NCBI GenBank assembly: GCA_033239005.1
Contig: BSQZ01000038.1
Coordinates: 1,723,501 to 1,787,500 of the forward strand
Length of the DNA: 64,000 nucleotides
From: Lamellibrachia satsuma
Lineage: Eukaryota; Annelida; Polychaeta; Sabellida; Siboglinidae
Direction of reading: 5' to 3'
A program made the translations under genes and the position numbers. Under the pieces are notes generated by a model, which was not told the origin of the DNA, made no database searches, and saw nothing but the letters and a program-made list of their open reading frames with translations. This document shows positions 42,601-48,600 of this stretch, piece by piece (positions within the stretch are counted from its first letter, which is position 1; every line of letters begins with the position of its first letter).

Positions 42601-45600
42601 GTGTTGAATCGCAAGAAACCTCAAAATCTTCATAATTAATATTAATAAAAATTCTATGGGACCCATATACTCAGGAACCTGAGCTCAGAGGCGCAACAAA
42701 ATAAATCATTAAGCATAATCGTCAACAGGGATGCACAAAAGTTATTATCAGAACAAGGGGCAACCAAAGATTTATGGTGGAAATACAATTTTAAGTAAAT
42801 ATGTCTTGAGTTTTTTTTTAAGATAGCTATAGTTTCAGATGTTTTCAAAGTGATGGGGGAGTTCATTTGAAACATCAGGCGCAGTGACAGAGAAAGCACG
42901 TTTTCCCAAGTTACATTTTGTTTTAGGCACAATAAGTTGTTGTGAAATTGACGATCTGAGCTGCCCATGGATATTTGAAAGATGCAGGAGACTAGCCAAG
43001 TAGGGTGGTTGTTGTGTAGATAGAGCATGATATGGAAGAGTGGACAGCTTAAAATTAATTCGATAAGTAACATATGATTTTTTAAATACAGGAAAATATA
43101 GGAAAAGATATTCATGACACATGCACATTAACACTATATCTTTGTCATCCCACCACTGTGGTTTCATTCTAACCCAACAGGTGTCGCATGTGTTATAAAC
43201 AATGTCTACTGAACGACAGCAGATAATAAAACTGACTACATACGCATTTACCAAAGTAAACAACCACTTCCAAAAATTATAATAAAAATATAATAAGAAT
43301 TTCTTTAACCAATTTCGAAATCTACCAGTTTCAGGCAGTGCATTGACATCACAAACATATCGCAACGATGTCACGAACATACGGCAACGACTTCACAAAC
43401 ATGACCCGCAACTGTAATTTTATTCTTAGCCAATAGGTGTCATACATGTGGTGAACATTGTCTATTGCAATAAAATATAGGAAAATCGAGGAATGCTGGG
43501 CAGCCTGCTAGTGTCCATGCACCATCGTTAGTCCTACCTATTTCATCTTCTATGTAGTTCTTTATGCAGACGTGATCAGGGGACACAATGAAGCTGATCT
43601 CTTCCTGGGTGGTCTGGAAGTTGGCGACCACATCACACAACAACCTGGGAATGTAGGAACGTGCAAGCAAATTAGAGCGCAATATCCCTAAAACTCCCTC
43701 TACAGTAGAACCTATCTGACAGAACCTGTGGCGCCTCTGGTGCATAATATAACACTAATATTAAAGTGAAATTGTGTAAGATTGTCGACGGAAATACATG
43801 TAATTCACGAAAATCCTTTGCCGTGCGATGAAACAATTGTGTATCTATGGCAACGCATGCTCAATCGCGTTCAAAGTTATTCAAACATCAGATCAGCCAA
43901 AATTTGCTCAATATCTGTTTAATATCAGTAAACGTTATTGTTCGTATACTGCATTTTTGCTGAAATAGTAGTTCTTTAACTATTTGGATTATTATCGTTG
44001 TCATGGATACAGCATTGTTCCAACAATTTAAAGTACATAATTATGCGTAGTAAGTCCATCGACACTCGATCCCACGTTTATACATGCCTACCATCTAGTG
44101 ATCAAAAACAGGATATTCCAGGTACTAACTATTGATTTAGCCCATCACAAATCATGTTTGTTCATGTTCAAATTCATAGTGTGAGAACTGTTAAATAATA
44201 TATGCAGTCACTTTAAATAAAAGAGTGCACACTTTTATTAAAATCAAAAGAAGAGAGAACAAGATTGTTAGGACAGAGATCCTAAGAGAAGACACCACAA
44301 CTGTACCTAGACTGTGTCAGGAGATTGTTAGGACAGAGATCATTAGAGAAGACACTACAACTGTACCTAGATTGTGCCAGGAGATTGTTAGGACAGAGAT
44401 CTTTAGAGAAGACACTACAACTGTACCTAGACTGTGTCAGGAGACTGTTAGGACAGAGATCCTTACAGAAGATACTACAACTGTACCTAGATTATGCCAG
44501 GAGATTGTTATGACAGAGATCCTTACAGAAGACACTACAATTGTGCCTAGATTGTGCCAGGAGATTGTTAGGACAGAGATCTTTAGAGAAGACACTACAA
44601 CTGTACCTAGACTGTGTCAGGAGACTGTTAGGACAGAGATCCTTACAGAAGATACTACAACTGTACCTAGATTATGCCAGGAGATTGTTATGACATAGAT
44701 CTTTAGAGAAGACACTACAACTGTACCTAGACTGTGTCAGGAGACCGTTAGGACAGAGATCCTTACAGAAGATACTACAACTGTACCTAGATTGTGCCAG
44801 GAGATTGTTATGACAGAGATCCTTACAGAAGACACTACAATTGTACCTAGATTGTGCCAGGAGATTGTTAGGACAGAGATCTTTAGAGAAGACACTACAA
44901 CTGTACCTAGACTGTGTCAGGAGACTGTTACGACATAGATCCTTACAGAAGATACTACAACTGTACCTAGATTGTGCCAGGAGATTGCTATGACAGAGAT
45001 CCTTACAGAAGACACTACAATTGTACCTAGATTGTGCCAGGAGATTGTTAGGACAGAGATCTTTAGAGAAGACACTACAACTGTACCTAGACTGTGTCAG
45101 GAGACTGTTAGGACAGAGATCCTTACAGAAGATACTACAACTGTACCTAGATTGTGCCAGGAGATTGTTAGGACAGAGATCCTTAGAGAAGACACAACAG
45201 CTTTACCTAGACTGTGCCAGGAGATTGTTATGACAGAGATCCTTACAGAAGACACTACAACTATTCTTAGATTATGCCAGGAGATTGTTATGACAGATAT
45301 CCTTACAGAAGACACTACAACTGTACCTAGAATGTGTCAGGAGATTGTTAGGACAGAGATCCTTAGAGAAGACTGTGCCAGGAGATTGCTAGGACAGAGA
45401 TCCTTAGAGAAGACACAACAGCTTTACCTAAAATGTGCCAGGAGATTGTTAGGATAGAGATCCTTAGAGAAAACATTATAACTTTACCTAGGCTGTGCCA
45501 GGAGATTGTTATGACAGAGATCCTCAGAGAAGACACAACTTTACCTAGACTGTGCTAGGAGATTGTGTAGGACAGATATCCTCACAGAAGAAACTACAGC

Positions 45601-48600
45601 TTTACATAGACTGTGCCAGAAGATTGTTAGGACACAGTTAGTTAGAGAAGACATTACACCTTTACCTGGACCATGCCAAGAGATTGTTAGGACAGAGATC
45701 CTTAGAGAAGACACTACAACTGTACCTAGACTGTGCCAGGAGACTGTTAGGACAGAGATCCTTAGAGAAGACAGCTTGCAGTGTTTCACACTCGATAAAG
45801 GCCAGGTTGTACGTCTTCACAATACCTGCAAAATGGGTAATAGATAGAAATCAAGGCCTATAAAATATCATATCATGTCTGTAGTGGAGTTGTTATTTAC
45901 CATTTATGTCTACAGTGAGTGGAGTTGTTATTTACCATTTATGTCTACAGTGAAGTTGTTATTTACCATGTCTACAGTGAAGTTGTTATTTACTGTGTCT
46001 ACTGTGTTTACCATTTCTTCAGTCAGGCCCTTAGCCAGGGACTTGTTCAATTATTGCAATTGGAAAATTGTGGAAACTCATAACACGTTTTTGTGTTTCA
46101 AAGAACAGGATGTTTGCTTTTTTAATAACAGGATTGTTTTTTAAATAACGGAATTTTGTATTCTAAATAAACAGATTTTTTGTGGGACTATAACTGGTTT
46201 TTATTTTCCTGATAAAGGATTATCAGGATAGCAACCTTTTTATTTGAGGAAATTAAAATGCAGACGTAGTTCGCCATCTTTTGTGATTTCAGTAGCGATT
46301 TCAGTGCCATGTTGACATTTATCGTTTCGCCGCCATGGTATGTAGTTTGTTATTTTCCTGCTATGTGTGCACATATTAATGCCTTCATCAACTGCATTAT
46401 CTGCCGAGCTGTTAATTACCATGTATGCAGTTAAGTTGTTATTAACCATGCCTGCAGTGAAGTTGTTATTTACCGTGCCTGCGGTGAAGTTGTTATTTAC
46501 CATGCCTGCGGTGAAGTTGTTATTTACCGTGCCTGCAGTGAAGTTGTTATTTACCGTGCATGCGGTGAAGTTGTTATTTACCGTGCCTGCAGTGAAGTTG
46601 TTATTTACCATGCCTGCAGTGAAGTTGTTATTTACCGTGCCTGCAGTAAAGTTGTTTTTTACCATGCCTGCAGTAAAGTTGTTATTTACCGTGCCTGCGG
46701 TGAAGTTGTTATTTACTGTGCCTGCAGTGAAGTTGTTATTTACCGTGCCTGAAGTGAAGTTGTTATTTACCGTGCCTGCAGTGAAGTTGGAAGGTGAGCC
46801 TGGCCTTGTCCATGTTGAGGGAGACAATGCATCGTTCCACCGACTTGTCCAGAAGAGAGAGAGATTTGAACACTCCCAGGCATGGCTGAGACAACACACA
46901 CAAATTATATAGTTGTCAACATTACTGCTTTCGTGGGAGAAATATACTGTTTCCCCCTCGGTCTACTTCTTTGACAAGATGTCCCGCTTTTTTGCAATTT
47001 AAAAAAATTTTGGTTATTGTAAAATCTATTTGTTGTAAGATGCCATTCTAGGCATGTTATTTGTAATTTCACATGTGTTCGTTAACAGGTGTTGACATCT
47101 ATGCCACGAACAACAACATACAGCTGAAACAACAACATGTTGTTGATGTATACATGAACTGCTCACAATGAGCTATGCTGAATGTTACCTTCATTGCTAT
47201 CTTGCACCGTACAAGGTTTTCGGCAGCGTCGGCGGAGTTGATGTGACCCGAGCCGTCATCGTAGTGCAGGAAGAAGGAAGGGGCAAAGAGGAAGCAGCCG
47301 TAGGCGGAGCGGGAAGAGTTTACTGTCCTTAGGGCCAACTGCAACACCAACTAGCCTGTCAGAACCAGAAACATTTAAATTTTCTGGCTTGGCCACACCT
47401 AGGCAATTGAATCAGTGATTTATTTTATTTGTATGACAAATATTATACACTTATTATGCACAAGTTGCTCCGGAATGTTGTATTGAGCTTGTGAGCCCAA
47501 AACAACATTCTGAAGCAACATTTGGGTTCATAACTAACATTTCAACACGTTTAAAAGGAATAACAACAACGATTGCTTGAAATCATATTATATATATTAC
47601 ATCTTGTAGTATATTTCCACAACACCAAAAAATTCATTAGAATTCCATTAATTAATAATTCCAAATAATATATTTTTCTACCAGCTTGCCTCGATTATGC
47701 ATATTTTTCCCACGCTTATCAACAAGCTTCAACGTGACATCACTGATGATAAGGAAGCGCTACAAGACTGGGATTACTACGAGACGGTACGGTGAATTAA
47801 TGATCATTTTTCAGATCATTTTGAATGTGAAGCATGGTCTTTTATTCACACCTGCTCACTGTACAAAACAAACAAAGCATTGTACTTCAACATTATCTAG
47901 TTAAACTTACAATCCCTTTGATGACAAGTACAGGAATAACAAACCCTTAAAGGGAAGGCTAATTCATTACTAGCTAGAACTAAGTAGATCTTGTGTGTCA
48001 CATCAGTTACCAAAATCACCAAGCCACTACAACGTGGCAGTTGGGCCGAATTCACTGATGGTCTAAATCACCGCCACCCGTCAGCTCTACTCCTGCTGTT
48101 GCGATGTTTATTTTCTGACCTACCCATGAAAATGAACACCTAGAGCCGCCAAACTTGTTCTCATATATTTACCATACATATACACTTGTCACGTGGTCAG
48201 ACATTATTCTTACTTCCATGTAACGATAAAAAAAATCACAAAAAAAACTAAAGCTAGCTATATCTTTTATGTCTAGCTCCGCAAAGCTAGGCATAGGATA
48301 TTATTTATTTTGATCTTTATTTGGAAGTAAAAGTGATGTTTGACCACGTCACCACGTGTATGCATATGGTAGATATATGAGAAGTTTGGCAGCTCTATGT
48401 GGTCATTTTCATGGTTCGGTTAGAAAGTAAATAAGTTCAAAGTCAAAGAGTACTGGTGTTGCTAAACTGCTCCGAAAGAGCAAGTTTCGAAGATGATTAT
48501 GCAGTATCACTAGAGGCTAGTGGTTTTAATTTGTTACATTTTACATTTTATTATGGAAAATTGACATCGCCATCACTCATTATAGTAACGCAAGTGAAAC

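What the first reader, a model, noticed from the sequence alone, without database searches (positions are those of the whole stretch)
44261..45825. RAD9 exon 5 end and splice donor amplified into a 60-bp array
The last 47 nt of exon 5 plus the first 13 nt of intron 5 form the unit of a ~25-copy array filling the start of intron 5. So an exon's own 5' splice site has been multiplied. The first donor (CTAG|GTACAG, GT at 45725-45724) gives the family-consistent protein. The second unit carries a stronger-looking donor (CCAG|GTAAAG, GT at 45665-45664). Using it would add exactly 20 codons in frame; the frame then meets TAA. The sequence thus predicts two RAD9 isoforms, or tight selection for the weaker first donor.
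Basis: partly seen in the sequence, partly recalled or inferred. Interest (0 to 1): 0.93.

Follow-up and report, generated by a model that had tools for sequence, protein, structure and literature searches.

The report
Tubeworm RAD9 splice-donor minisatellite arrays
In a deep-sea tubeworm, the end of a DNA-repair gene's exon, with its splice signal, is repeated about 24 times in a row at the start of the next intron; the same happens at other exons of this genome, so it looks like a known kind of repeat expansion (named in lancelets) rather than a special switch in this gene.

Summary
Exon 5 of a minus-strand RAD9 gene (45825-45726) ends inside a 60-bp array (44262-45773): 24 units carry the exon end and donor site (the real one included), plus one truncated unit; 22 of 24 keep GT. 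The first donor scores below the second under two matrices; using the second adds 20 codons in frame before TAA. The genome is from a siboglinid tubeworm close to Lamellibrachia satsuma, whose annotated RAD9A uses the first donor; eight aligned proteins show no insert. New here: exons 4 (27-bp units) and 2 (21-22 bp) of the same gene have such arrays too, 3 of 11 donors against 0 of 10 acceptors (Fisher p=0.21). Elsewhere in the genome, 4 of 61 kinesin and 5 of 18 myosin donors head donor-spanning repeats. The units show no coding constraint and no clear extra conservation of the donor. Best reading: a 'mirage' minisatellite, named in amphioxus, here in an annelid and recurrent in its genome, tolerated because exon definition picks the donor nearest the acceptor across the exon. 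The two-isoform idea is possible but needs RNA.

The parts
45726..45825 (-). RAD9 exon 5 (100 nt); its last 47-48 nt are the exonic part of the repeat unit
   Evidence: gene model; Pfam Rad9 on exon 5, below the curated cut-off; human RAD9A in PDB
45724..45725 (-). Family-consistent donor GT of exon 5, TAG|GTACAG, low-scoring
45664..45665 (-). Donor GT of the first intronic unit, CAG|GTAAAG, higher-scoring; would add 20 codons
44262..45773 (-). 60-bp donor-spanning tandem array, 24 junction-bearing units (real exon end included) plus one truncated unit
46771..46885 (-). RAD9 exon 4; its last 19 nt are the exonic part of a second array
46410..46789 (-). 27-bp donor-spanning tandem array (CAACTTCACTGCAGGCACG|GTAAATAA), about 14 copies, at the start of intron 4
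   Evidence: TRF 14.1 copies; score 31, shuffled mean 9.4; 12 junctions matched by the regular expression, the real one included
45874..46006 (-). Diverged copies of the same GTAAATAACAACTTCACTG family at the 3' end of intron 4
49309..49379 (-). RAD9 exon 2
49256..49322 (-). Three degenerate donor copies GGG|GTAAGTA, TCG|GTAAGTA, AGG|GTAAGTT, period 21-22 nt, at the exon 2 end (limits approximate)
   Evidence: (score 16, shuffled mean 7.3)
43538..43644 (-). RAD9 exon 6, joined to exon 5 without insert in relatives

Best explanation
A mirage-type minisatellite. A short tandem duplication spanning the exon 5/intron 5 boundary grew by slippage or unequal exchange into about 24 units (mechanism inferred). 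The copies lie in the intron, so the protein is unchanged as long as splicing uses the donor at the true exon end. With a 100-nt exon and introns of 945 and 2081 nt, exon definition would pair the exon 5 acceptor with the nearest donor across the exon, the first one, even though it scores low (inferred; consistent with the general rule in the abstract of PMC9225289). The extra donors are passive by-products. The same process has acted on exons 2 and 4 of this gene and on other exons of this tubeworm genome.
For: Unit equals exon end plus intron start. Relatives and the annotated L. satsuma protein show no insert at the junction. Units look neutral: divergence 0.060/0.083/0.079 at codon positions 1/2/3 and 0.069 in the donor window against 0.073 elsewhere, 21 units (units 3 and 4 dropped for indels, the exon copy not counted). 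Stops occur inside units. Donor arrays recur: RAD9 3 of 11, kinesin 4 of 61, myosin 5 of 18. Within kinesin, donors (4 of 61) do not differ from intron positions 120-180 nt inside (14 of 132; p=0.44) but do, just, from exon middles (0 of 68; p=0.047); with myosin donors added, 9 of 79 against the same kinesin controls give p=1.0 and p=0.004. So arrays seem to arise anywhere in introns, boundaries included, and coding interiors exclude them. A clear acceptor array at C1:26426682. Precedents: amphioxus (PMC3087553, PMC3902484) and human minisatellites at exon-intron boundaries (PMC2812944); passages read.
Against: RAD9 has 3 of 11 donors affected and 0 of 10 acceptors (p=0.21); pooled donors 12 of 90 against acceptors 3 of 68 give p=0.10: a donor preference is neither shown nor excluded. 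The GT itself is somewhat less diverged (0.048) than the rest, on two columns only. Kinesin and myosin rates differ (p=0.025), so the genome-wide rate is uncertain. No RNA evidence that the first donor is used in this animal. In human genes, two thirds of the intron modifications by such repeats also have transcripts retaining the repeat (PMC2812944, passage), which goes against a purely passive view.
Confidence: 0.85

Rival explanations
1. Two RAD9 isoforms: the second donor (45665) is used in some cells, adding 20 residues that repeat the end of exon 5.
For: The second donor scores higher than the first under both matrices; the 60-nt extension is open and in frame, with TAA right after. Human boundary minisatellites often have transcripts that retain the repeat (PMC2812944, passage).
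Against: Any donor after the second lies beyond the in-frame TAA. Exon 4's extra donors lie beyond a stop that begins 5 nt after the exon end. The insert is absent from the annotated L. satsuma protein and from the six other relatives aligned. The neutral pattern gives no sign of selection.
Confidence: 0.1
2. The donor array has a function: many U1-binding sites that recruit splicing factors, protect the transcript from early polyadenylation, or allow stepwise removal of the intron at AG|GT sites.
For: 22 of 24 units keep GT; units also hold a CTAAC and CAG-like stretch before the AG|GT (read by eye; not scored); donor arrays recur in other genes.
Against: The donor window is no more conserved than the rest of the unit (0.069 against 0.073; a random set of 9 columns is as low in 54% of draws). 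Donors are not more often covered by repeats than intron interiors.
Confidence: 0.04
3. An assembly artefact inflated a short duplication.
For: No reads could be inspected.
Against: The array sits on a 6.6-Mb contig; its units differ from each other in a higher-order pattern (lag 3 and lag 5); one match was returned in the genome, by a search that gives lower bounds for repeats. Similar arrays occur on several other contigs.
Confidence: 0.02

Closest known systems
Amphioxus 'mirages' (Adh3 minisatellites; also globin genes BflGb6 and BflGb9, troponin C)
   Same: Tandem repeats whose unit spans an exon-intron boundary, at 5' or 3' ends of exons; many but not all units carry AG/GT; the authors' RT-PCR and the Adh3 data suggest no interference with regular splicing, though they note the copies could act as cryptic sites (PMC3087553, passages read; troponin C from a passage of PMC3902484; the 2002 Adh paper itself was not held).
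   Different: Host is an annelid tubeworm, not a cephalochordate. 24 copies of 60 bp here; the same gene carries three donor arrays; length instability and transcripts untested.
Amphioxus PGBD5 60-bp and 108-bp repeats (PMC3902484)
   Same: 60-bp imperfect repeats abutting a splice site, with a gene model uncertain because of extra predicted splice sites (passages read).
   Different: 2 or 7 copies of 60 bp there, depending on the assembly; different gene and phylum.
Human minisatellites at exon-intron boundaries in segmental duplications (PMC2812944)
   Same: Units of about 30 bp repeated at an exon-intron boundary, linked to cryptic splice sites and novel introns (passages read).
   Different: About 4 units on average, in recent primate gene copies; many alter coding sequence or transcripts, whereas here the relatives' protein is unchanged.
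Intron gain by tandem duplication of AG/GT proto-splice sites (Rogers model, cited in PMC3087553)
   Same: A duplication containing AG|GT makes potential splice sites.
   Different: No intron gain was tested here; the arrays lie at the start of introns 2, 4 and 5.
Earthworm metallothionein intron 1 repeats (PMC12783039)
   Same: Annelid, large minisatellite-like repeats in an intron (passages read).
   Different: The passages I read report no repeat unit that includes the exon end or donor.

Membership tests
Mirage minisatellite | Repeat unit spans an exon-intron boundary | tested here: met
   exon 5, and also exons 4 and 2
Mirage minisatellite | Many but not all units retain splice dinucleotides | tested here: met
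   22 of 24 units keep GT; 21 of 24 keep G|GT
Mirage minisatellite | Unit length in the published range (10-160 bp) | tested here: met
   60, 27 and 21-22 bp; range from PMC3087553
Mirage minisatellite | Homogenised interior, diverged edges | tested here: inconclusive
   Lag-3 and lag-5 similarity among units 6-23; the units next to the exon are more diverged by eye, but the real exon unit is close to consensus; no tree built
Mirage minisatellite | Normal splicing is not disturbed | not testable with these tools
   No RNA data; only protein conservation
Mirage minisatellite | Length or somatic instability | not testable with these tools
   One assembly, no reads
Mirage minisatellite | Cephalochordate host (as published; not intrinsic to the structure) | tested here: not met
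   Best RAD9 match is Lamellibrachia satsuma, 96% identity; Branchiostoma about 60%

The most novel reading that the evidence does not exclude
In this tubeworm, amplification of splice donors is a genome-wide habit (9 of 79 donors in the two gene families sampled). Its spliceosome must choose the exon-proximal copy among many near-identical donors by position alone, or uses the arrays (extra U1 binding, stepwise removal of the intron), making the genome a natural experiment on donor choice.
Probability: 0.25. Interest if true: 0.75.

Novelty: new member of a known kind. Interest (0 to 1): 0.5.

Why it matters
In the papers I could find, boundary-spanning minisatellites were reported in lancelets and, with few copies, in recent human gene duplicates. 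Finding them at 3 of 11 donors of one annelid gene and at 9 of 79 donors of kinesin and myosin genes suggests that long donor arrays can be common in a quite different animal lineage. Each array is a natural competition among near-identical donors, in which protein conservation says the outermost must win: a direct test of exon definition. They are also a likely source of mis-annotation and raw material for new introns or isoforms.

Tried and rejected
Amphioxus as the host: my first guess from the mirage literature, rejected when RAD9 matched Lamellibrachia at 96% and Branchiostoma at about 60%. Species by mitochondrial COX1: no match in the assembly.

Array as coding repeats: rejected, similar divergence at the three codon positions and stops in units. 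In-frame period as a requirement: 60, 27, 51, 21 and 30 are multiples of three, but 28, 34, 43, 53 and 65 are not (those outside RAD9 counted by eye), so rejected; the exon 2 and L080 repeats are irregular and were not counted. Donor hotspot: donors are not covered more often than intron interiors. A first survey scan that took the best of many windows mixed plain intronic repeats with boundary repeats (scores of 14 or more: donor side 10, acceptor side 8, intron controls 18 and 14, each of 68) and was replaced.

In one search one of the 4 automatic kinesin hits (C19:7959181) is, by eye, an array starting just after the likely donor, while C14:8360524 (score 13, below the cut-off of 14) is a true donor array; C30:2864059 is one extra copy only; the count stays 4 of 61. 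Of the 3 acceptor hits only C1:26426682 is clear. The probe overlaps its target by 10 nt, so 10 is the floor there. False positives at the cut-off: 6 of 3050 resampled targets (without that overlap). In one search the '11 acceptors' include the start codon of exon 1, which is no splice site; I count 10 (tests redone; the p=0.06 becomes 0.10). Exons 10a and 10b are less certain than 1-9; without them RAD9 gives 3 of 9 donors and 0 of 8 acceptors (p=0.21). Rows dropped: 58 of 126 kinesin matches lacked fetched DNA; 7 of 68 had no donor and 10 of 68 no acceptor above the limit; of 77 myosin matches I fetched the donor side of 20, picked by hand among matches without internal stops before seeing their flanks, and 2 of 20 gave no donor. 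The recalled 5' splice-site frequencies come from memory; the second matrix was trained on donors chosen with the first, so it is not independent. MaxEntScan was not available. I built no tree of the units.
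Full report
What is there. The window lies on a 6.6-Mb contig of a 735-Mb genome. The minus strand holds a RAD9 gene: Pfam Rad9 is the best family for exons 3 to 6 taken one by one (exon 3 above Pfam's cut-off of 25 bits, exons 4, 5 and 6 below it), human RAD9A matches exon 5 though exon 6 alone finds no RAD9 in the PDB, and nine exons, with splice sites chosen by eye, read through in one frame. The closest protein is RAD9A of the vestimentiferan tubeworm Lamellibrachia satsuma (96% identity, 100% coverage), identical to my model over exons 1-8 (it departs only around the exon 8/9 junction). 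Branchiostoma is about 60%. The host is therefore a siboglinid annelid, probably Lamellibrachia or a near relative. Four tubeworm assemblies listed in PMC9921365 range from 561 to 1091 Mb (passages read), which fits.

The array. TRF covers 44262 to 45773 with a period of 180 (3 x 60), and with two rows of period 60. Anchoring on the exon end gives 24 units with a junction, the real one included, spaced 60 nt apart except for steps of 61, 57 and 101, the last holding a truncated unit. Of the 24, 22 keep GT (losses at 45266 and 44546). The real donor, TAG|GTACAG, scores 2.8; the next, CAG|GTAAAG, 7.6; the other ten donors of the gene model score 5.3-10.7 (recalled human-like frequencies). With a matrix from 61 kinesin donors of this genome the two score 2.8 and 7.0, and the donors of exons 1 and 3 then score even lower than that of exon 5 (2.5), so 'weakest of the gene' holds only under the first matrix. 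Using the second donor adds 20 codons, then TAA follows.

Which donor is real. Across the exon 5/6 junction, eight RAD9 proteins (this model, L. satsuma, Lingula, Owenia, Capitella, Solemya, Branchiostoma, Saccoglossus) align without a gap. That supports the first donor. It is protein-level evidence; the L. satsuma protein is an annotation of unknown transcript support.

Not one array but three. The donor of each of 11 RAD9 exons (10a and 10b included) was compared with the next 200 nt: exons 2, 4 and 5 recur (scores 16, 31, 24; shuffled means 7.3, 9.4, 8.8; p at the floor of 0.003), exon 9 is borderline (p=0.06), the rest do not; none of 10 acceptors recurs upstream (the difference is not significant, p=0.21). 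At exon 4 the unit is 27 bp with about 14 copies and near-identical donors; skipping the first meets a stop that begins 5 nt after the exon end. At exon 2 three degenerate copies share GTAAGT with a period of 21-22 nt.

Neutral evolution of units. In 21 units (units 3 and 4 dropped, exon copy not counted), divergence from consensus is 0.074 in the exonic part, 0.066 in the intronic part, 0.060/0.083/0.079 at codon positions 1/2/3, and 0.069 in the donor window against 0.073 elsewhere; the GT alone gives 0.048. Nothing suggests that the copies code, and there is no clear sign that their donors are kept by selection.

A recurrent habit of this genome. Kinesin (126 exon matches) and myosin (77) were used to anchor exons. 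Donor-spanning tandem copies: kinesin 4 of 61 donors, myosin 5 of 18; the two rates differ (p=0.025). The myosin cases are striking: L073 carries AGCAG|GTGAGTG ten times in the first 300 nt fetched, and L074, L079 and L071 are similar. Controls in kinesin: exon middles 0 of 68 in each direction, intron positions 14 of 132 downstream and 15 of 132 upstream, acceptors 3 of 58. Within kinesin, donors do not differ from intron interiors (p=0.44) or acceptors (p=1.0) and just differ from exon middles (p=0.047); with myosin donors added against the same controls, 9 of 79 gives p=1.0 for interiors, 0.004 for exon middles and 0.24 for acceptors. Pooling RAD9, which was chosen because of its array, gives 12 of 90 donors against 3 of 68 acceptors (p=0.10). 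Arrays thus seem to start anywhere in introns, boundaries included, and are barred from coding interiors.

How it most likely works. Shown: the boundary is multiplied, copies drift without visible constraint, relatives' proteins fit the first junction, and similar arrays exist elsewhere in the genome. Inferred: growth by slippage or unequal exchange, and choice of the first donor by exon definition. PMC9225289 (abstract read) reports that with large flanking introns the splice sites closest across the exon are preferred; introns 4 and 5 here are 945 and 2081 nt (from the coordinates).

What is known. Such arrays were named mirages in amphioxus (PMC3087553, PMC3902484: passages read); both papers suggest that the repeats do not disturb normal splicing. 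In human segmental duplications, minisatellites at exon-intron boundaries are linked to novel introns and often to transcripts that retain the repeat (PMC2812944, passages read). My searches for the same in tubeworms or annelids, or under more general terms, showed no other report in the listings; I opened only the papers named in this report, and the library holds open-licence papers only, so this is a weak negative. I file it as a new member of a known kind, in a new phylum and at a frequency that deserves a proper survey.

Noticed in passing
window 39429-39358 and 37701-37630 (minus strand): Two similar 72-nt RAD9 exon copies (10a, 10b) about 1.7 kb apart, both with splice sites, flanking a 25-bp array of about 21 copies (38522-39039). 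Only 10a is in the L. satsuma protein; use of 10b in mRNA unknown.
   Followed up: partly
window 39746-39779 (minus strand): A (CAA)n run inside RAD9 exon 9 encodes 11 glutamines, also 11 in the L. satsuma protein.
   Followed up: partly
P0001 (L. satsuma RAD9A), exon 8/9 junction: The annotated protein reads [17 protein letters not shown] where this model and the six other relatives aligned have K/R-P-I/V; probably an annotation or indel error in that record.
   Followed up: partly
G000:C1:26426682-26426846: A clear acceptor-side array: many copies of a roughly 40-nt unit with TTGTAG|CGCTACT just before a kinesin exon.
   Followed up: partly
L071, L073, L074, L079, L080: Myosin-head exon donors heading arrays; L073 has ten AGCAG|GTGAGTG copies in 300 nt.
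   Followed up: partly
window 44219-44236 (minus strand) and 60523-60968: Just beyond the far end of the exon 5 array lies an AAAAGTGTGCACTCTTTT motif like that of a 32-bp array at 60523-60968; a weaker match lies at 33033.
   Followed up: no
window 58775-59859: VPS29-like exons on the plus strand next to RAD9 (recognised by eye, not tested); in humans VPS29 also lies near RAD9B (recalled).
   Followed up: no
window 14537-17441 and 53254-56553: Long open frames that look like non-LTR retroelement endonuclease and reverse transcriptase (recognised by eye); the second lies upstream of RAD9 exon 1.
   Followed up: no
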